Shown piece after piece: positions 50,923-60,770 of a DNA stretch of 64,000 bases. The stretch is from positions 258,281 through 322,280 of the forward strand of contig JACRMB010000010.1 of the NCBI GenBank assembly GCA_016235065.1. Direction: 5' to 3'. The notes below the pieces were generated by a model that made no database searches, was not told the DNA's origin, and saw nothing but the letters and a program-made list of their open reading frames with translations. A program made the translations under genes and the position numbers. The number at the start of each line of letters is the position of its first letter. Position 1 is the stretch's first letter. This DNA comes from Actinomycetota bacterium. Lineage in GTDB: Bacteria > Actinomycetota > Thermoleophilia > BMS3ABIN01.

Positions 50923-53628
50923 ATGACGTTACGCAAGAAGACTTTGTTGATAATCAGTCTTACCATGGCAGCTCTTCTTGCAGTTTTTTACCTGATCTCC
51001 TCAGCTGTGCTGCTTAATGGCTTCGAGGAGATCGAGGCCCAGGAGACCCGGCAGGATGTCCAGCGGACCATCGACTCGCTTGTCGACGATATGGCAGCCC
51101 TTGAGAATTCGACCCGGGACTGGGCGGTATGGGATGACACTTACGCGTTCATCAGCGACGGCAATGCCGAATACGTAAAGACCATCGAGACGAGCTTCGT
51201 CAACAACCAGGTTAACATGATGATGTTCGTTGACAGCTCCACCAATATCGTGTTCGCGGAAGCTTTCGACCTCGCCGCCGAAGAAAAAGTGGAGCTGCCC
51301 GAGAGCTGGCGCTTACTGATCGGCGAGGAAATGAGGCTTCTCAGCGACCCCGATCACACGGACGCGGTGACAGGTCTGGTCATGATGCCCGAGGGTCCGA
51401 TGCTGATCACCGCTCACCCGATCCTGACCAGCGAGGGAACCGGGCCGGCGAAGGGAACGGTCATCTGGGGCCGGTACCTGGACGAGTCGCAGGTGGATCG
51501 GCTGGCCGAGATCACGAACCTTTCCCTTGCTGCTTTCCGTCTTGATGATCCTTCGCTGCCAGACGATTTCCGTCAGGCTTTGAATTCAATCGACGAACAG
51601 AACCAGTATTTTGTCGAGCTGCTGGATTCTGACAATATAGCTGGCTATGCCGTGCTCGAGGATATCAGGGGCGCGCCGGTGCTGATCCTGCGGGTAGATA
51701 CACACAGGGCCATCTACCACCAGGGTTTGTCCACCATGCATTATTTTGTGGCATTTATTTTCGCCGCCAGCCTCATCATCGGCGTCACGACGACGTCCTT
51801 GCTTGAAGTGACGGTCTTTTCAAGGATGTCTCGCATCAGTGATGACGTCCGCAAAATCGGCTCCCGCAAGGATGCGACCGCCCGGGTGAGCATCAGCGGC
51901 GGGGACGAACTGACAAGTCTTGCCGGAGGCATCAACACGATGCTGTCGGCGCTGGAGGAATCCCAACGAGACCTGCGCGCGGCCCACGACGAGCTCGAGG
52001 CCAGGGTCCAGGAGCGTACGGTCGAGCTGCGCGACAAGGTCGCCGTACTGCAGACCCTTACCGAGATCGACAGCGAGGTGATGGGCGCTACCCGCTCACA
52101 GTCGATTCTGAACCTTGTCTGCCACCGTGCCGCCGAGCTGCTTCGGGCTCCCAAGGGACTGATCGTGCTCAGTGGCGATGGTGACGAAGGGCATGTCGCC
52201 GCCAGCGTCGGCCTCGAATATGAAGCAGGAGTCGAGGAAGAGATCACGCCATACATGAACGCCGACGGCCTCGACAATATCGATCTCTACCATAACGGGG
52301 CCTTCGCGGTGAATAATATCGCCGAGACCATGCCTCACATGAGGGAGTTCCGCATCAGGGAAAATATAAGATCCCTTGCGGTGGCGCCGCTGGTTACTGA
52401 AGGGCGGATGCTCGGCGCGCTCCTGGTGTTCGATACGGTCAAACGCAAGTGGAGCCCCGATGAAGTGCAGGTCATGGGCCTGCTCTCCGTGCAGGCGGCA
52501 ATCGCCCTTGACGAAGCCAGGCTATTCGAAGAGGAACAGTCCCGCCGCGAAGAACTGGCTGTGCTTTACGGACTATCCCGGGAGCTTGCCGATGCACCCC
52601 CGGAACTCGACCGGATCCTCGATCTGGTGGCAAAACACACGGTCGAGACTACCCATGTCACCTTTGCCGGCATAGCACTGGTGGATGAAAAAGAAGAGCT
52701 CGTCATACGCGCGGCTCATCCGGTCCGTTCGCTCGATTGCGATCTGCTGACCGACAGCCGCCAGGCAATGCAGCAGAATTTCTGTCATGTCTGCCTGCAG
52801 CTTTATGCGCCGATCGTGATCCGTGACGATTCTGCCGACCTGAGCCCGCGTGAACGCGAGATGCTCTTTCCAGACGACACCCACACGCTCTGCCTGGTGC
52901 CGTTGCGCGCCGGCGATCGTGCCCTGGGCCTGCTGATGCTCGGCGAAGCCCGGGGTGAGAAGCGGGAGCCGTTCACGCCGGAGAAGATGCGGCTCGCCCA
53001 CAGCATCGCCGACCAGACCGCCAGCTCCCTGGTGCGCGCCGAGCTGTTCACCCAGCTCGAGCATTCTTATCTGGAGACGGTCCTGTCCCTCGCTGGCGCG
53101 GTCGAGGCGAAGGATACCTATACTGCGGACCATGCCGAGAGCCTGGCCAGAATGGCATTGGCTATCGGCAGCAAGGCGGGTATGAGCGAGAAGGAACTGG
53201 AAGCTCTTCACTTCGGTGCAATCCTCCATGACGTCGGCAAGATCGGCGTTCCGGATTCCGTCCTTCAGAAACCTGGAAAGCTGGATGATGACGAATGGCG
53301 GCTGATGAAAAAACATCCGGACATCGGCGCGCGGATACTTTCGCCGGTGCCTCGCCTGGCTGGCGCCGCCAGCATCGTTCGCCATCACCATGAACGCTTT
53401 GACGGCAGCGGCTATCCCGACGGCCTCGCCGGGGAGGATATCCCGCTCGGCGCGCGTATCCTCACCGTCGTCGATTCCTACAGCGCCATGGTCGACGATC
53501 GTGTATACAAGGAAGCCTTCTCAAAGGATGAAGCCATCGCGGAGCTCAGGCGCTGCGCCGGCTCACAGTTCGATCCGCAGATCGTGGAGTTCTTCCTGGA
53601 GAAGACAGCAGACGGCGCGCCAGGATAA
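50923..53628 (+). CDS. CHASE4-HAMP-GAF-GAF-HD-GYP sensor, probable c-di-GMP phosphodiesterase
   Basis: A 901-residue protein. A membrane helix (about 7-29), a periplasmic CHASE4-like domain (about 35-260, with NSTRDWAVWDDTYAF), a second helix (about 278-300), HAMP, a short coiled coil, two GAF domains (about 390-535 and 560-710) and a C-terminal HD-GYP domain. The catalytic motifs are complete: AILHDVGKIGVPD, HHHERFDGSGYPDGLAGED and the ARILTVVDSYSAM helix. HD-GYP enzymes hydrolyse c-di-GMP. The external ligand is unknown. It starts 105 bases after nifB but without clear coupling, and is followed by a paralogue at 53725. Confidence 0.92.
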   Translation: MTLRKKTLLIISLTMAALLAVFYLISSAVLLNGFEEIEAQETRQDVQRTIDSLVDDMAALENSTRDWAVWDDTYAFISDGNAEYVKTIETSFVNNQVNMMMFVDSSTNIVFAEAFDLAAEEKVELPESWRLLIGEEMRLLSDPDHTDAVTGLVMMPEGPMLITAHPILTSEGTGPAKGTVIWGRYLDESQVDRLAEITNLSLAAFRLDDPSLPDDFRQALNSIDEQNQYFVELLDSDNIAGYAVLEDIRGAPVLILRVDTHRAIYHQGLSTMHYFVAFIFAASLIIGVTTTSLLEVTVFSRMSRISDDVRKIGSRKDATARVSISGGDELTSLAGGINTMLSALEESQRDLRAAHDELEARVQERTVELRDKVAVLQTLTEIDSEVMGATRSQSILNLVCHRAAELLRAPKGLIVLSGDGDEGHVAASVGLEYEAGVEEEITPYMNADGLDNIDLYHNGAFAVNNIAETMPHMREFRIRENIRSLAVAPLVTEGRMLGALLVFDTVKRKWSPDEVQVMGLLSVQAAIALDEARLFEEEQSRREELAVLYGLSRELADAPPELDRILDLVAKHTVETTHVTFAGIALVDEKEELVIRAAHPVRSLDCDLLTDSRQAMQQNFCHVCLQLYAPIVIRDDSADLSPREREMLFPDDTHTLCLVPLRAGDRALGLLMLGEARGEKREPFTPEKMRLAHSIADQTASSLVRAELFTQLEHSYLETVLSLAGAVEAKDTYTADHAESLARMALAIGSKAGMSEKELEALHFGAILHDVGKIGVPDSVLQKPGKLDDDEWRLMKKHPDIGARILSPVPRLAGAASIVRHHHERFDGSGYPDGLAGEDIPLGARILTVVDSYSAMVDDRVYKEAFSKDEAIAELRRCAGSQFDPQIVEFFLEKTADGAPG

Positions 53629-53724: not shown

Positions 53725-55515
53725 ATCAGGAAGTTCAGCTTACTTGCAAAATACTCCATCCTCTCGCTGATCGTAACCGCGGGGGTCTCACTTTTCGTGG
53801 CCTGGGGCCTGCAGCGCAATCAGGAAGCCAGGATCATCGAGATCGAGGCTGACAGCGCCGCCGATCAGGTAGATACCGTGCTGGCGTCCCACCTGCTCCC
53901 ATCCGACTTCAACCAGCCGCTCAGCCCTGAAAGGTACCGGCAGATCGATGAGATAATACGCACGGATATCGTGCACGAACACGTGGTGCGCGTGAAACTG
54001 TGGAACCGGGAAGGCAAGCTGATCTATTCGGATGCCGGTGACGGCGAGATGGTCGGCGAGACCCCGGAGATGTCACACGAACTCGAGGAAGCGCTCGACG
54101 GTGAGATGGCCACGGAGATCTCCGATCTCGAAAAAGAGGAGAACGCCACGGAGGCCGAGCGGTTCGAGCATCTGCTGGAAGTGTATGCTCCAGTCCGGCT
54201 CGACGGGTCAGACCAGATCGTCGGAGCCTTCGAGGCTTATCACCACCTTGGCGTGCTCGAGCCCGGTATCGCCGACATGCGGCGCTTCGTAGCCTTCAGC
54301 ATTGGCGCCGGTGCGGTGATCATATATTTTTCTCTGTTCGGGATAGTCCGTGGAGCCTCCCGGCAGCTGGTAAGACGCAGCCGGGAGAACAGACGGCTGT
54401 TCGAAGAGGAAAAGACCCGCCGGTCAGAGCTGTCAGCGCTGTATGGCCTTTCCCGTTCCCTGGTCAATGCCCCGCCAGAGGAAGGTGAATCCCTCGGCAT
54501 CATCGTCAGGAATGCCGTCGATACCCTGCATGTGACTTTCGCCTGCGCCTTCCTGCTGGAAGGAGACAGCGTGGTCCAGCGAACCGCACATCCAATCCGT
54601 TATCTCGGGCGTGACCTGAAGGTCGAACAATGTTACCTCAACGAACACTGCCCCAGTCTGCTGCAGGCGGCGCTGGCGGATGAGCCGGTTCTGATCCGCC
54701 GGGATGCAGCTGCCGGTCTGTCCAGCCAAGAGCGGCATATGCTCTACCTGGACCTGGCGCAGACGATCTGCCTTGTTCCTGTCAAGGCGGGTGAGCTTCC
54801 GCTGGGCATCCTGCTCCTGGGCGAATCGCGCAGTGACATCCGTGAGCCGTTCACGCCGGAGAAGCTGCGCCTCTGCGGCAGCATCGCCGACCAGGCGGCC
54901 AGCTCCCTGCAACGCGCCAGTCTCTTCAGCGACCTGGAGAAAGCATATCTGGAAACAGTGCTTACCCTGGCGAACGCCGTCGAGGCCAAGGACACTTACA
55001 CCAAGAACCACGCCGAGAACGTATCGCATATGGCGGTGGAGGTCGGCAAGGCAATGGGGCTCGACGACAACCTGCTGGAGGACCTAAAATATGGTGGCGT
55101 GCTCCACGATGTGGGCAAGATCGGCGTCCCCGATGCCGTCCTGAAAAAACCGGGCAAACTCGATGACGAGGAGTGGATCCTGATGCGAGCTCATGCCGCG
55201 CTCGGCTCTGACATCCTCAAACCGGTGCACCGCCTCGCCGGAGCGGCAAATGTGGTGCGCCATCACCATGAACGCTACGACGGCCATGGTTATCCTGACG
55301 AGATCGCGGGAGAAACTATCCCGATCACTGCGCGCATCCTCACGACGGTTGACTCATATAGCGCCATTGTCGACCGGCGGCCGTACAAGCAGGCACGCAG
55401 CCACGCGGAAGCTGTTAAAGAGCTGAAGCGCTGCGCCGGCACCCAGTTCGATCCCGATGTAGTGAGGACATTCATCGGGCTCTTCGAAAGCGGCGCACTC
55501 ACCCCGGACGAATAA
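53725..55515 (+). CDS. GAF-HD-GYP membrane sensor with a probable ATC start
   Basis: About 596 residues if begun at ATC 53725. The first ATG/GTG/TTG in frame is GTG 53797, but that cuts away IRKFSLLAKYSILSLIVTAG, a basic residue cluster plus a membrane helix that every such sensor needs, and the only stop-free codon between TGA 53707 and there with an SD (GGGAG, nine bases) is ATC. The rest is a small periplasmic domain, a second helix near residue 195, one GAF domain and HD-GYP (VLHDVGKIGVPD, HHHERYDGHGYPDEIAGE). It is closely related to the C-terminal half of the preceding gene. Probable c-di-GMP phosphodiesterase. Confidence 0.85.
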   Translation: MRKFSLLAKYSILSLIVTAGVSLFVAWGLQRNQEARIIEIEADSAADQVDTVLASHLLPSDFNQPLSPERYRQIDEIIRTDIVHEHVVRVKLWNREGKLIYSDAGDGEMVGETPEMSHELEEALDGEMATEISDLEKEENATEAERFEHLLEVYAPVRLDGSDQIVGAFEAYHHLGVLEPGIADMRRFVAFSIGAGAVIIYFSLFGIVRGASRQLVRRSRENRRLFEEEKTRRSELSALYGLSRSLVNAPPEEGESLGIIVRNAVDTLHVTFACAFLLEGDSVVQRTAHPIRYLGRDLKVEQCYLNEHCPSLLQAALADEPVLIRRDAAAGLSSQERHMLYLDLAQTICLVPVKAGELPLGILLLGESRSDIREPFTPEKLRLCGSIADQAASSLQRASLFSDLEKAYLETVLTLANAVEAKDTYTKNHAENVSHMAVEVGKAMGLDDNLLEDLKYGGVLHDVGKIGVPDAVLKKPGKLDDEEWILMRAHAALGSDILKPVHRLAGAANVVRHHHERYDGHGYPDEIAGETIPITARILTTVDSYSAIVDRRPYKQARSHAEAVKELKRCAGTQFDPDVVRTFIGLFESGALTPDE

Positions 55516-55587: not shown

Positions 55588-55603
55588 TACTACATGCATA
55601 GGA
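55588..55603. promoter_or_regulatory. BlaI-box-like site upstream of the BlaI-family gene
   Basis: TACTACATGCATAGGA matches 12 of 16 positions of the staphylococcal-type MecI/BlaI dyad (TACTACATATGTAGTA), with a perfect left half. It sits 22 bases before the regulator's ATG, next to TATTAT (a possible -10), as expected for autorepression. Confidence 0.55.
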
Positions 55604-55624: not shown

Positions 55625-56038
55625 ATGGCCAAAGAGAGAAAAACCTACTGGTATCGTGACAGCATGAGTGCGACCAATCTGACATCTGCGGAAGCAGAGA
55701 TCATGCGCGTGGTCTGGGATGCCGGCGAGCCGGTAACTGTCAGGGACGTCTACGAATCGCTGCTCAAGCAGCGGAAGCTCGCCTACACGACCGTGATGAG
55801 CATTATGGGCAAGCTGACCAAGAAAGGCTTTCTGCTCCAGGATAAAAGCGGCACCGCCTATATCTACTCCGCCGCTTTCACCGATGAGGAGGTGGCCGGC
55901 AATATCATCGATTCCGTCGTCAATAAGGTCCTCGATGGCGCGGCGGCGCCGCTGATATCTCGCCTGCTCGGCTCCAGGAAGAAGCTGACAGCAGAAGAAG
56001 TGGAAAAACTGGAGGAGTTACTAAAAAAGAAGAAGTAG
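55625..56038 (+). CDS. BlaI/MecI/CopY-family repressor
   Basis: This 137-residue winged-helix repressor has recognition region LTSAEAEIMRVVWDAGEPVT, followed by VRDVYESLLKQRKLAYTTVM, the canonical BlaI/MecI DNA-binding core. The C-terminal half is a dimerising and helical tail. In known systems a BlaR1-type protease cuts the repressor within this tail after sensing a signal. GGAGAG precedes ATG 55625. The gene is followed after 26 bases by an M56 peptidase gene, the standard partner, and preceded by a BlaI-box-like dyad. Confidence 0.94.
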   Translation: MAKERKTYWYRDSMSATNLTSAEAEIMRVVWDAGEPVTVRDVYESLLKQRKLAYTTVMSIMGKLTKKGFLLQDKSGTAYIYSAAFTDEEVAGNIIDSVVNKVLDGAAAPLISRLLGSRKKLTAEEVEKLEELLKKKK

Positions 56039-56064: not shown

Positions 56065-57144
56065 ATGCTTGACTCGTGGCAACGCATCGTTTTCTTTCAC
56101 CTCCAGCCGGCGATCATCGACGGGATGCTGTCCCTGGCGGGCGTGCTACTGCTCCTGCGGATTTTCCGCGTCCGCAACCCTTCCATAAGGTCATTCTTCC
56201 TCTTCATCCCTCTGGTGCGGCCACTGATCATCCTCCTGGAGGGCAGCGCCCGTGCGAACCGGCTTACATTTCCAAACAGTTATGTCGCCCTGCGTTTTCC
56301 TGATCCGCTGAATCTCATCCCCCTGAGCGACATAGTCGGACAGAACGATTTCTCGGTCGTTTCGCGTCTCATCGTGGCGCTGATCATCGTCTTCCTGATC
56401 ATTGCCCTGGCGTTCCTCGGCTTTCGCTGGGCGAGTTTTGCCCTCTTCTACCGGCGCATGCGGGTCCAGTCGTTGCAGGTCGAGGTACCCGAAAGGGCGG
56501 CTGAGACTCTACGGAGCCTGGTTCTGGACCTGTCTCGCCAGGTCGGCATGGCTCGCCCTCCCGAGATCCTTTTCACTGAAGACGGCTGGATGACACCTTG
56601 CGCCATCGGCTGGCGCCGGCCCGCATTGATAATCGACCCGGCGCTTGCCTTCGATCTTGATCCGGACGAGCTGCGCGCTGTTCTGGCCCATGAAATGAGC
56701 CATATATACCGCCGTGACGGCCTCTGGCACTGGATATCCGTCCTGCTTCGCGACATCCAGTCTTTCAGCCCTTTTTCGCACATGAGCATCTTCAGATTGG
56801 GCCTGGAACGGGAAAAAGCCTGCGACCGCGAAGCTGTCGAATCGTTTCGGCTCCCGCCGCGGCTTCTTGCATCCTGCCTGGTCAAGGTCGCAAGACTGAG
56901 GCTGGTCAAAGAGTCGAAACCGCTTCCCGGTTATGGACTCGGCTTCATGAGTGGTGGCCGCCTGCTGGAGGACCGTCTCAACTACCTGCTCGACATGGAA
57001 AGCGACCTTGTTTCCGGAAAACCGGGGCGTCATAACATCGGCAAAGCAAGAAAAGCGGTTCTGCTGGCCATCTGGATACCCCTGGTCACGATCCAGCTGT
57101 ACATCTGCGCCTGGATCGGCGATTACATCCTGGTCATCAAATAA
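56065..57144 (+). CDS. BlaR1-like M56 membrane metallopeptidase without sensor domain
   Basis: A 359-residue protein. Three N-terminal membrane helices, a cytoplasmic zinc peptidase region with HEMSH (His209-Glu210-His213, in LRAVLAHEMSHIYRRDG) and the third-ligand Glu in EKACDREAVESF, and a final membrane helix (KAVLLAIWIPLVTIQLYICA) at the very C-terminus. The penicillin-binding sensor domain of true BlaR1 is absent, so the signal is something other than a beta-lactam. It could cleave the BlaI-type repressor, the leader of the downstream peptide, or both. The SD is weak. It is 31 bases upstream of the peptide gene. Confidence 0.92.
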   Translation: MLDSWQRIVFFHLQPAIIDGMLSLAGVLLLLRIFRVRNPSIRSFFLFIPLVRPLIILLEGSARANRLTFPNSYVALRFPDPLNLIPLSDIVGQNDFSVVSRLIVALIIVFLIIALAFLGFRWASFALFYRRMRVQSLQVEVPERAAETLRSLVLDLSRQVGMARPPEILFTEDGWMTPCAIGWRRPALIIDPALAFDLDPDELRAVLAHEMSHIYRRDGLWHWISVLLRDIQSFSPFSHMSIFRLGLEREKACDREAVESFRLPPRLLASCLVKVARLRLVKESKPLPGYGLGFMSGGRLLEDRLNYLLDMESDLVSGKPGRHNIGKARKAVLLAIWIPLVTIQLYICAWIGDYILVIK

Positions 57145-57175: not shown

Positions 57176-57337
57176 ATGAAGTCGGTCAATGAAGACGGCA
57201 AGCTATGGAGCAGCAGGAAGAACGGCAGCATCAGCGGCATCGTCGGCCCCAGCTGCTGCTGGGTTATCGGATGTTGCTGGTACTGGTATGGAATGGCCTC
57301 CAAGGAGGCGGCAAAGCCTGACACCGCAAACGCCTGA
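57176..57337 (+). CDS. Candidate RiPP precursor peptide (53 aa, CC...CCWYWY)
   Basis: A 53-residue peptide from ATG 57176 with an unusually strong SD (AGGGAGGTGA), which suggests high expression. The first 26 residues are a polar, leader-like segment (MKSVNEDGKLWSSRKNG). Residues 27-39 read CCWVIGCCWYWYG: two adjacent Cys pairs and four aromatics in 13 residues. A small Ala/Lys/Asp-rich tail follows. It lies 11 bases before a radical SAM/SPASM gene, the standard partner of sactipeptide and ranthipeptide precursors. Thioether links from the four Cys are the expected modification. I do not recognise it as a known precursor family. Confidence 0.75.
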   Translation: MKSVNEDGKLWSSRKNGSISGIVGPSCCWVIGCCWYWYGMASKEAAKPDTANA

Positions 57338-57348
57338 AAGCCGAAAGC

Positions 57349-58710
57349 ATGTTTCTGACCAGAAGACTGGTGCGTTATAAGGAAGCAGACGGAGAGATCT
57401 GGCTCAACGCTCTCACCGGGGCTGTCGACCGGCTGAGCGGCGAGGAAGTGAGCCTCGTCGACCGGACCCTCAGCCGCGAAGGCGGCCAAATCGATTCGCC
57501 GTTGCTGAGACAGCTGAAGTCTCGCGGCTATCTCTACATTGATAAAGCGGAGGAAGCAGCCGCCTTCGACCGACTGGTCGAAGAGCAACGGCAGGACCAG
57601 GGCAGCAGACCCACAAACCTGATCATATGTCCCACTTTTTCGTGCAATCTGCGCTGCGTTTATTGCTTCCAGCGACTGCCTCATCAGCGATTCTCCAGCA
57701 AGGCGATGAACCTGGATTCACTCTCGCTCGCCCTGGAAGCCTTCCAGCTGATACGTGAAAAGGAGCCCGGCCGACAGTATTCGCTGGGACTCTTCGGCGG
57801 CGAGCCTCTGCTGCTTGCAAACCACGAGGTAGTGCGCCAGGTCATGGAACATGCGAAGTCAGAATCACTGCCGTTGATGATCGTCAGCAATGGTGTCAGT
57901 GTGCCTGGTTTTATCACCATCCTCGAGGAATATGCCGACAGCATCATGGCCGTGCAGTTGACGATCGACGGCCCCGAGGATGTCCACGACGCACGGCGGC
58001 CATCAGCCGGTCGACAGGGCACCTTCCAGGATGTGGCCGCCGCGGCTGACCTGCTCCTGGAAAGGGGCATCAAAGTTGTACTCAGGGCTAACGTGGACAG
58101 GAAGAACCTGGGATCACTGCCTGAATTGACCGGTATCGTGCAAGACCGGGGCTGGGCGGCTAACCCCGCGTTCACATGCAGCCTCGCTCCAGTGAAAGAC
58201 CACCTTGGATCCGGGACTATCCCCAATGTGACACCCGATGCCGAACTGCTTACGACCCTGCTCGACGTCTACGATGAGAATCCCGAAACGGAAGTGCTCT
58301 TTGGATTCCAGGGGCTGCAGATGCTGACACCCGTCGCCGGCCTGATTTGTGGCGAGCGAACGACCTCTCCGAGGGTCTATCATTGCGAGGCGAACTACGG
58401 GGGCTACTGGGTCGCCAGTCCCGACGGCTACCTGTATGCCTGCCCTGAATCGATCGGGCAGCCTCATCTGGCGATTGGACGCTTTGAACCCGAACTGGAG
58501 ATCTGGGACAGCGCCAGGGATGAATGGGCCGGTCGCGACATCGCTACGCTAATTCGATGCAGTGATTGTGCGGTTGGCCCACTGTGCGGAGGCGGCTGTA
58601 CCTATGCTTCCCTGGCTCGCGACCGTGAAGAAAGGCAACCCGACTGTGATCCCGGCCTGGAGGAGGCCATCGGCGTATTCCTCCGCAGACGAGTCATCAC
58701 TTCCTGCTGA
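57349..58710 (+). CDS. Radical SAM/SPASM peptide maturase
   Basis: This 453-residue enzyme has an N-terminal domain (about 1-85, YKEADGEIWLNALTGAVDRL) that looks like the small winged or RRE-like region of peptide-modifying radical SAM enzymes. The radical SAM core has Cys99, Cys103 and Cys106 (CNLRCVYCFQ) and LFGGEPLL. The SPASM domain fits the full seven-Cys rule: C...GYLYAC, then CSDCAVGPLCGGGC (C-x2-C-x5-C-x3-C), then a last Cys in QPDC, giving two auxiliary clusters. Such enzymes install thioether or carbon-carbon crosslinks in ribosomal peptides. The SD is weak compared with that of the peptide gene. Confidence 0.93.
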   Translation: MFLTRRLVRYKEADGEIWLNALTGAVDRLSGEEVSLVDRTLSREGGQIDSPLLRQLKSRGYLYIDKAEEAAAFDRLVEEQRQDQGSRPTNLIICPTFSCNLRCVYCFQRLPHQRFSSKAMNLDSLSLALEAFQLIREKEPGRQYSLGLFGGEPLLLANHEVVRQVMEHAKSESLPLMIVSNGVSVPGFITILEEYADSIMAVQLTIDGPEDVHDARRPSAGRQGTFQDVAAAADLLLERGIKVVLRANVDRKNLGSLPELTGIVQDRGWAANPAFTCSLAPVKDHLGSGTIPNVTPDAELLTTLLDVYDENPETEVLFGFQGLQMLTPVAGLICGERTTSPRVYHCEANYGGYWVASPDGYLYACPESIGQPHLAIGRFEPELEIWDSARDEWAGRDIATLIRCSDCAVGPLCGGGCTYASLARDREERQPDCDPGLEEAIGVFLRRRVITSC

Positions 58711-58755
58711 GAAGTCCCTGCCTGATATCGATAAATGAAGGAAAATGCGGTATAT

Positions 58756-58771
58756 TACTATAACTGTAGTA
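58756..58771. promoter_or_regulatory. BlaI-box-like dyad upstream of the GGDEF/HD-GYP gene
   Basis: TACTATAACTGTAGTA matches 13 of 16 positions of the MecI/BlaI operator and has dyad symmetry (TACTA/TAGTA). It overlaps TACTAT (58770-58775), the likely -10 element of the gene starting at 58785, so binding should block transcription. Confidence 0.6.
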
Positions 58772-58784
58772 CTATGAGATTATT

Positions 58785-60770
58785 ATGAATATACAGCTCG
58801 AAGCAATAGAGAACCTATACCAGATAATCATGCATAGAACCGGCGATGCCGTCCTGTGCCTCGATACTGGCGATGGCCACGTCCTCCACGCCAACAAGTG
58901 GGCCGAGAAGCTGACAGGCCTGAGCGCCGGTGACTGCGTGGTCTCCCCAGAGCCATCCGTGAACCTGGCGCTGCCGGGCTGGCTGCGGGACGCCGTTTCC
59001 GAGGCCAGGAACCGGAAGGTCGTGCGCACCTGCGCGATCTGGGAATCGCCTGAATTCGGCAGTGGGAAGAACCGGCTGCTGGAGATCTTCATCACGAGGA
59101 TGAACAGCGGCGAATCGCGCCTCGCCATCCTGGTCAGGACTTTGAACAGCGACAGGATGGTGGAAAAAAAGCTGTGGCGGCGGAATCACGAACTCCATCT
59201 TCTCAATCACGCCAGCCGCATGGTGAGCCGCTCACTCAATCCAAGGGAAGTCGCCAGTATCGCCCTTGAGCTGTCACTTGACCTGTTCGACGCCCGATGT
59301 GGCATCGGCTACCTGGCCGACCCGGAAAAAAGCGCTCTCGTCCCGGTGGCTGCGCATGGTGTGTCGGAGACCCTTGACCTGCGCGAGCTCGGTTTCGGTG
59401 GCGGGCAGCCACCGGTCACAGCGTTCAACGCTGGTGATACGGTCTTTTGTACCGGCCGCCTTCCGGACGGTCAACTGATCAATGAGGAGGGACTCAGCAC
59501 CGTGACTATCCCCCTGCAGACAAACAATGCCGTACTGGGAGTCCTGGAGCTGGCCGGCGACAGCGACGAGAGCCCGGGAATGGATTATAACGCTGATTTA
59601 TTCACCTCATTCGGCTTTCAGGTCGGCATCGCGCTGGAAAATGCACTTCTGCACAAGAAAGTGGAAGACGCCTCGCGGCTCGACGGCCTCACAGGCATCC
59701 ATACCCGCCGCTATGTTGAAACCCTGCTGGAGGATTGTCTTAAGCGTGGCAAACGCTATGGCGAGAAGTTCGCGACGCTGATGATCGATATCGACCGGTT
59801 CAAGCCCATCAACGACTTTCATGGACACGAGATCGGTGACCAGGTCCTCAAACAGGTAGTTGAAGTATTCCGCCAGGAGGTTCGAGACACGGACTATCTG
59901 GGCCGCTGGGGAGGCGAAGAATTCCTGATAATCCTCACCCAGGTCGGCTGGCAGGAGGCACTCAATATCGCCGAACGGATACGTCTGCGTGTCGCTGCAC
60001 TCAGCTTCATGAAGATCAGCGGCTCGGAACTGCCAATAACAGTCTGCGTCGGTGTAGCCTGCTACCCCGACCACTCAGACTCCGCAGACAGCCTGGTGCG
60101 TTGTGCAGATGACGCCATGCGGTACGCAAAGCGGAAAGGACGCAACCGGACGCATCTGTTCAGAGAGGATGCGGTCGGCGTCACTGAAGAAGATATCCGC
60201 CAGGAAATCGACTGGGGCGCGGGGATGGAGACGATCCGGGCACTGGCCGCGGCTCTCGACGCCAAGGACAGCTATACGGCAAGCCATTCCGAGTCTGTCA
60301 AAATGTTATCGGTCAAGATCGCGGTACAGATGCAGCTGGACACCCAGCAGAGCGAGGTCCTTGAGTGGGCGGGCCTGCTGCACGACATCGGCAAGGTTGC
60401 GATCCCCGACTCGATCCTGAACAAACCCGGCTCGCTCGAGCCCGATGAATGGGCGATAATACGCGAACATCCGCGCATGGGCGTCCTGATCCTGAAAGAA
60501 GCACCGCAGCTTTCCAGCATCATCCCGGTAGTCCTCCACCATCACGAGAACTTTGATGGCAGCGGCTATCCGATGAAGATCGCCGGCGAAGATATTCCGT
60601 TACTGGCGAGGATTCTGCGTGTTGCCGATGCGTTCATGGCGATGACCTCGAATAGGCCTTATCGCAAATCCCTGTCGACTCAGGAAGCGTGGTTCGAGAT
60701 AGAATCAGCCAGCGGCAGGCTGTTCGACCCTTTGATAGTCAGTGCGCTTGCGGGGATCGTCGCTTCATAG
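58785..60770 (+). CDS. PAS-GAF-GGDEF-HD-GYP c-di-GMP turnover protein
   Basis: A 661-residue cytoplasmic protein. A PAS-like domain (about 10-110, TGDAVLCLDTGDGHVLHANK), GAF (about 140-285), GGDEF (about 290-460, with active-site RWGGEEFLII and the DIDRFKPINDFHGHEIGD region) and HD-GYP (about 480-655, LLHDIGKVAIPD, HHHENFDGSGYPMKIAGED). Both catalytic motifs are intact, so it may make and degrade c-di-GMP depending on its sensors. ATG 58785 has no SD and follows a -10-like TACTAT by nine bases, implying a very short leader. The BlaI-like dyad before it suggests co-regulation with the peptide operon. Confidence 0.93.
   Translation: MNIQLEAIENLYQIIMHRTGDAVLCLDTGDGHVLHANKWAEKLTGLSAGDCVVSPEPSVNLALPGWLRDAVSEARNRKVVRTCAIWESPEFGSGKNRLLEIFITRMNSGESRLAILVRTLNSDRMVEKKLWRRNHELHLLNHASRMVSRSLNPREVASIALELSLDLFDARCGIGYLADPEKSALVPVAAHGVSETLDLRELGFGGGQPPVTAFNAGDTVFCTGRLPDGQLINEEGLSTVTIPLQTNNAVLGVLELAGDSDESPGMDYNADLFTSFGFQVGIALENALLHKKVEDASRLDGLTGIHTRRYVETLLEDCLKRGKRYGEKFATLMIDIDRFKPINDFHGHEIGDQVLKQVVEVFRQEVRDTDYLGRWGGEEFLIILTQVGWQEALNIAERIRLRVAALSFMKISGSELPITVCVGVACYPDHSDSADSLVRCADDAMRYAKRKGRNRTHLFREDAVGVTEEDIRQEIDWGAGMETIRALAAALDAKDSYTASHSESVKMLSVKIAVQMQLDTQQSEVLEWAGLLHDIGKVAIPDSILNKPGSLEPDEWAIIREHPRMGVLILKEAPQLSSIIPVVLHHHENFDGSGYPMKIAGEDIPLLARILRVADAFMAMTSNRPYRKSLSTQEAWFEIESASGRLFDPLIVSALAGIVAS

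What the first reader, a model, noticed from the sequence alone, without database searches (positions are those of the whole stretch)
58740..58790. BlaI-type operator predicted to control a c-di-GMP enzyme
TACTATAACTGTAGTA (58756-58771) matches the classic BlaI/MecI dyad at 13 of 16 positions and overlaps the probable -10 of the GGDEF/HD-GYP gene. A second match (12 of 16) lies before the BlaI-type gene. Two such sites flanking one small cluster are unlikely by chance and would make c-di-GMP turnover part of a BlaI regulon, which I have not seen described.
Basis: partly seen in the sequence, partly recalled or inferred. Interest (0 to 1): 0.6.

Follow-up and report, generated by a model that had tools for sequence, protein, structure and literature searches.

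The report
BlaI operator controlling c-di-GMP enzyme
The palindrome is very probably a genuine binding site for the neighbouring BlaI-type repressor, a kind best known from antibiotic resistance, and here it appears to switch a c-di-GMP signalling enzyme together with an uncharacterised peptide-making gene cluster, a link I found in no published work.

Summary
TACTATAACTGTAGTA (58756-58771) is the only perfect TACTA-N6-TAGTA in the 2.37 Mb genome and overlaps the predicted -10 of a GAF-GGDEF-HD-GYP gene. A second dyad precedes blaI. Across 19 family genomes the four perfect TACTAYN4RTAGTA sites all lie in this cluster. In 20 clusters from distant families the dyad is concentrated upstream of cluster genes (12 sites in 6.8 kb against 3 in 279 kb). 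The genome's other BlaI has operators with the same half-sites spaced one base wider (N5), so the GGDEF site (N4) most likely belongs to the window's BlaI. A relative (G015) keeps promoter and operator before a decayed remnant of the GGDEF gene.

Best reading: a BlaI/M56 circuit controls this operon and, in one family, a second promoter for c-di-GMP turnover. Binding, inducer and peptide chemistry are inferred. The GGDEF coupling is confined to one family and is lost in parts of it.

The parts
55588..55603 (.). BlaI operator O1 (TACTACATGCATAGGA), ends 21 bp before blaI, autoregulatory
   Evidence: orthologous blaI promoters carry TACTATGTAAATAGTA, TACTATTTAGATAGTA, TACTATACAAATAATA
55625..56038 (+). 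blaI (BlaI-1), repressor, 137 aa, Penicillinase_R PF03965
   Evidence: 102.6 bits, cut-off 22.6; closest solved structures 2g9w, MecI, BlaI
56065..57144 (+). M56 (BlaR1-like) membrane metalloprotease, 359 aa, HEMSH motif, no penicillin-binding sensor domain
   Evidence: (PF05569, 78.1 bits)
57176..57337 (+). 53-aa Cys/Trp-rich peptide (MKSVNEDGKLW...SCCWVIGCCWYW...), putative RiPP precursor, preceded by GGAGGTGA
57349..58710 (+). radical SAM/SPASM peptide maturase, 453 aa, CNLRCVYC
58728..58756 (+). predicted promoter of the GGDEF-HD gene (TCGATA-17-TATATT)
58756..58771 (.). BlaI operator O2, dyad 1 (TACTATAACTGTAGTA), the only perfect TACTA-N6-TAGTA in the genome
58770..58785 (.). O2 dyad 2 (TACTATGAGATTATTA); its 14-bp core abuts that of dyad 1 exactly; weaker right half
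58785..60770 (+). GAF-GGDEF-HD-GYP c-di-GMP enzyme, 661 aa; GGEEF, I-site RxxD, HDIGK and HHE..DG.GYP all intact

Best explanation
BlaI-1 represses two promoters: its own, which drives blaI, the M56 protease, the peptide and the radical-SAM maturase, and the promoter of the adjacent GAF-GGDEF-HD-GYP gene. It binds ACTAY-N4-RTAGT dyads that overlap or directly follow the -10. By analogy with BlaR1/BlaI, the M56 membrane protease cleaves BlaI-1 when it is activated. The signal is unlikely to be a beta-lactam sensed as in BlaR1, because there is no penicillin-binding sensor domain; the modified Cys/Trp-rich peptide or a membrane disturbance is the likeliest candidate. Derepression would then raise both the peptide pathway and c-di-GMP synthesis/degradation capacity. 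Shown by computation: operators, their conservation, gene content and catalytic motifs. Inferred: binding, proteolysis, inducer, peptide modification and direction of the c-di-GMP change.
For: The site is unique in 2.37 Mb, although the genome has 20 GGDEF matches. The four perfect TACTAYN4RTAGTA sites in 19 family genomes are all in this cluster, in genomes with the orthologous blaI. Orthologous blaI promoters carry the dyad. In G015 the dyad TACTATTCTTGTAGTA follows a TTGACA-17-TATAAT promoter behind rSAM, with a GGDEF remnant downstream (GDALVRCADDAMQLAK against ADSLVRCADDAMRYAK). In G017 the GGDEF-HD ortholog (56% over the retained part) is also directly behind rSAM. Across 20 distant clusters 12 sites lie in 6.8 kb upstream of cluster genes against 3 in 279 kb elsewhere; shuffled upstream regions gave a mean of 0.83 and a maximum of 4 in 500. 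The paralog BlaI-2 uses N5 spacing at its own promoter here and in nine relatives, and at nearby abutting tandems, a natural control for specificity. Abutting double dyads resemble the four-protomer arrangement reported for C. thermocellum BlaI (PMC8457756).
Against: No binding or expression data exist. O1 in this genome has an imperfect right half. The GGDEF gene is absent or decayed in G015 and G008 although the operator persists, so its benefit is not universal. In more distant clusters nearby GGDEF/HD-GYP genes lack the dyad. The window promoter's -35 is weak.
Confidence: 0.83

Rival explanations
1. The GGDEF operator is bound by the second BlaI (BlaI-2, contig C5) or by both repressors, so c-di-GMP answers to a different signal.
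For: BlaI-2 recognises nearly the same half-sites, ACTAY/RTAGT.
Against: BlaI-2 operators are consistently N5 where recognisable; the GGDEF and blaI-1 sites are N4. Family genomes with BlaI-2 but without BlaI-1 have no perfect 16-base N4 site.
Confidence: 0.07
2. The operator is real but the GGDEF gene is a passenger: its regulation has no physiological role, or the promoter's original target was another element.
For: G015 and G008 keep promoter and operator without a GGDEF gene; G017 has rSAM fused to the HD-GYP half, if not an assembly error.
Against: G015 has a GGDEF remnant downstream; the window gene has all catalytic motifs intact; the two genomes with the gene hold it in the same position.
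Confidence: 0.08
3. Chance palindrome in an AT-rich intergenic stretch.
For: Sites with one mismatch occur about 1-2 times per genome by background.
Against: Perfect sites: 4 in 19 genomes, all in the cluster; strong enrichment at cluster promoters in other families; 0.12 expected against 3 seen in the window.
Confidence: 0.02

Closest known systems
Staphylococcal BlaI/BlaR1 and MecI/MecR1
   Same: Penicillinase_R repressor next to an M56 membrane metalloprotease; autoregulatory dyad, 13/16 match at O2; BlaR1 cleaves BlaI directly (PMC9834060).
   Different: No penicillin-binding sensor on the M56 protein, no beta-lactamase or PBP in the cluster; targets are a modified-peptide operon and a c-di-GMP enzyme.
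[quoted passage not shown]
   Same: Small autoregulatory regulons, half-sites GTCTAT/GACTAT, paired inverted repeats for four protomers, one genome with two BlaI proteins.
   Different: The main text mentions no diguanylate cyclase, GGDEF or radical SAM; the reported spacing is 5 nt, not the 4 nt (between pentamer half-sites) of BlaI-1.
Radical SAM/SPASM RiPP maturases (TIGR04463, CefB NF038107, Clo7bot TIGR04334, PapB NF047865)
   Same: CxxxCxxC radical SAM core, SPASM domain, short Cys-rich peptide gene next door.
   Different: Scores are far below every curated equivalog cut-off (best 116.5 against 525 bits); the peptide matches no NCBIfam model.
CopY/CopR copper repressors
   Same: Same repressor superfamily; 16-base operator, often duplicated (PMC7253601).
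   Different: CopY equivalog cut-off not reached (73.8 against 121.95 bits); the partner is a protease; no copper export gene in the cluster.

Membership tests
BlaI/MecI repressor family (PF03965) | Penicillinase_R domain above the curated cut-off | tested here: met
   102.6 bits against 22.6
BlaI/MecI repressor family (PF03965) | BlaI-type dyad at its own promoter, conserved in orthologs | tested here: met
   O1 here imperfect; perfect or near-perfect in G017, G015, G008; degenerate in G009
BlaI/MecI repressor family (PF03965) | Dimeric binding to the operator | not testable with these tools
   Needs EMSA or footprinting
BlaR1/MecR1 beta-lactam sensors | M56 metalloprotease with HEXXH | tested here: met
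   PF05569 78.1 bits against 31, HEMSH at 209
BlaR1/MecR1 beta-lactam sensors | C-terminal penicillin-binding sensor domain; BlaR1 equivalog cut-off | tested here: not met
   359 aa, no sensor domain in Pfam; NF000326 32.1 against 400 bits
Radical SAM/SPASM RiPP pathway | Radical SAM core plus SPASM domain | tested here: met
   PF04055 53 bits; TIGR04085 SPASM 44.6 against 27; CNLRCVYC cysteines and C-terminal cysteines invariant in 14 homologs
Radical SAM/SPASM RiPP pathway | Adjacent conserved precursor peptide | tested here: met
   15 homologous peptides beside the enzymes, invariant W11, C27, C28
Radical SAM/SPASM RiPP pathway | Peptide is post-translationally modified | not testable with these tools
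   Needs co-expression and mass spectrometry
Radical SAM/SPASM RiPP pathway | Membership of a named maturase equivalog (TIGR04463, NF038107, TIGR04334, NF047865) | tested here: not met
   All far below cut-off
Bifunctional GGDEF/HD-GYP c-di-GMP enzyme | Intact GG(D/E)EF, I-site, HD and GYP motifs | tested here: met
   GGEEF 376, RDTD I-site 367, HDIGK 533, HHENFDGSGYP 586

The most novel reading that the evidence does not exclude
BlaI, M56 protease, Cys/Trp-rich peptide and radical-SAM enzyme form a self-contained peptide-sensing circuit: the modified peptide activates the sensorless M56 protease, which cleaves BlaI and thereby couples peptide maturation to c-di-GMP turnover.
Probability: 0.3. 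Interest if true: 0.8.

Novelty: new variant of a known kind. Interest (0 to 1): 0.57.

Why it matters
BlaI-type repressors are known mainly from antibiotic and copper resistance. Here one appears to govern an uncharacterised modified-peptide operon spread through the phylum and, in one family, a c-di-GMP enzyme. If true, it gives BlaI/M56 pairs without a beta-lactam sensor a testable role and adds a transcriptional entry point into c-di-GMP signalling. Two paralogs in one genome that seem to be told apart by a single base of operator spacing are also a clean test case for how this family keeps its regulons separate.

Tried and rejected
Chance was rejected by whole-genome and family scans. The second BlaI as owner of the site was tested and disfavoured on spacing. 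A third regulon member, a secreted S8 subtilase with CarboxypepD_reg repeats (G000:C10:334550), has a perfect 14-base core behind TTGACA-18-TATTAT, but no close homolog in nine relatives, so conservation could not be tested; background for such cores is about one per genome, so I leave it as a candidate. HD-GYP/GGDEF genes also lie near clusters of other families (L093, L095, L097, L100, L101, L109), but without the dyad, so I do not claim a general link. The first genome-contig scan with a single protein found nothing; the second, with an alignment, gave mostly distant radical-SAM proteins. Literature searches for BlaI with c-di-GMP, GGDEF, or radical SAM/RiPP found no such link; only open-licence papers were searched, and the 'diguanylate cyclase' search was uninformative because it listed 200 papers with the prefix 'blai' in only one to three places each, probably other words or names.

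Full report
Observation. The sequence TACTATAACTGTAGTA lies exactly at 58756-58771 and ends 13 bp before the ATG of a 661-aa GAF-GGDEF-HD-GYP protein. It matches the staphylococcal dyad at 13 of 16 positions and has no equal in the window. The second site, before blaI at 55588-55603, matches at 12 of 16. With TACTA-N6-TAGTA and at most one mismatch, three sites occur in 64 kb, all in this cluster, against 0.12 expected. In the whole 2.37 Mb genome the GGDEF site is the only perfect one.

Context. Upstream of the site is an operon: blaI (55625-56038), an M56 membrane metalloprotease without sensor domain (56065-57144), a 53-aa peptide (57176-57337) and a radical SAM/SPASM enzyme (57349-58710), with gaps of 26, 31 and 11 bp. 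The GGDEF-HD gene follows 74 bp later with its own predicted promoter, TCGATA-17-TATATT. Its catalytic and product-inhibition motifs are intact. With no clear terminator between rSAM and GGDEF, read-through from the blaI promoter is also possible; that too would place the gene under BlaI.

The operon elsewhere. Relatives of the maturase occur in 30 of 396 sampled genomes of the phylum (named relatives are Actinomycetota MAGs such as Thermoleophilia bacterium B_ACT_02 and Candidatus Geothermocultor). Of 20 such loci outside the window's family, 19 hold an M56 gene and 15 a blaI gene nearby, and at least 13 carry a recognisable homologous peptide, consensus MKSLNxDxxLW...CCWxxxxCWxW. The enzymes stay far below all curated NCBIfam RiPP-maturase cut-offs and the peptides match none. 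I read this as an uncharacterised RiPP-type pathway; modification is inferred.

Operator conservation. In these 20 clusters, TACTA-N6-TAGTA sites (at most one mismatch) number 12 in 6.8 kb upstream of cluster genes and 3 in 279 kb elsewhere; shuffling gave a mean of 0.83 and a maximum of 4 in 500. Some clusters are close relatives of each other, and two of the sites overlap, so the 12 are not all independent. Within the window's family, orthologous blaI genes in G017, G015 and G008 carry TACTATGTAAATAGTA, TACTATTTAGATAGTA and TACTATACAAATAATA at the equivalent position, and G009 a degenerate AACTATACTTTTAGTC. All four perfect TACTAYN4RTAGTA sites in 19 family genomes are in this cluster.

The GGDEF promoter in relatives. 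G017 holds the GGDEF-HD ortholog directly behind rSAM, although a deletion or assembly error has fused the two in frame and removed the intergenic region. G015 has blaI, M56, peptide and rSAM, then TTGACA-17-TATAAT followed by TACTATTCTTGTAGTACTAT, and about 190 bp further on a fragment GDALVRCADDAMQLAK that matches the window protein's ADSLVRCADDAMRYAK. I take this as a decayed GGDEF gene behind a surviving operator. G008 has lost M56, peptide, rSAM and GGDEF but keeps promoter and a slightly altered dyad. So the coupling is ancestral to these genera (or was transferred between them) and is being lost in some.

Which BlaI. The genome has a second BlaI (contig C5). Its promoter, and those of its orthologs in nine relatives, carry ACTAY-N5-RTAGT. 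Four perfect N5 sites exist in the genome, three of them within 4 kb of that gene, including two that abut. The window's sites are N4. At the GGDEF promoter two N4 dyads also abut: [ACTATAACTGTAGT][ACTATGAGATTATT], period 14, against [ACTACGTACAATAGT][ACTACACGATATAGT], period 15, for BlaI-2. Paired inverted repeats for four protomers are what DAP-seq and scanning found for C. thermocellum BlaI proteins (PMC8457756). The second N4 dyad here has a weak right half.

Mechanism. BlaR1 cleaves BlaI directly in S. aureus (PMC9834060). I infer the same for this M56/BlaI-1 pair, with a signal that is unlikely to be a beta-lactam, since the penicillin-binding sensor is missing. The peptide itself is the most economical candidate, but nothing here tests it. 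Because the target has both GGDEF and HD-GYP domains, the direction of the c-di-GMP change cannot be predicted.

Novelty. No open-access paper found links BlaI with GGDEF/c-di-GMP control or with a radical-SAM peptide operon. The parts are known kinds; the combination is a new variant.

Noticed in passing
57176-57337: Cys/Trp-rich 53-aa peptide of an apparently undescribed RiPP precursor family (MKSLNxDxxLW...CCWxxxxCWxW), conserved beside radical-SAM/SPASM enzymes across the phylum.
   Followed up: partly
L059:12551 (G000:C10:334550, about 12.3 kb beyond the window end): Candidate third BlaI-1 target: CACTATGATTATAGTA behind TTGACA-18-TATTAT, in front of a secreted S8 subtilase with about ten CarboxypepD_reg repeats, cut by the contig end.
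   Followed up: partly
L067:8443-12052 (G000:C5): Second BlaI with an M48/M56-type protease and its own N5 operators, including an abutting pair at C5:37022-37051 before a small lipoprotein-like gene and a Fer4_5 membrane protein.
   Followed up: partly
L058:2590-4491: In G017 the radical-SAM gene is fused in frame to the HD-GYP half of the GGDEF-HD gene; deletion or assembly error not resolved.
   Followed up: partly
50923-53628 and 53797-55515: Two further HD-GYP genes directly upstream of blaI with intact motifs and no dyad of their own; HD-GYP/GGDEF genes also lie within several kb of clusters L093, L095, L097, L100, L101 and L109.
   Followed up: partly
G001, G002, G003, G004, G006, G010, G012: The exact 14-mer ACTATTGACATAGT recurs once in each of seven relatives in which no BlaI-1 ortholog was found; context not examined.
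   Followed up: no
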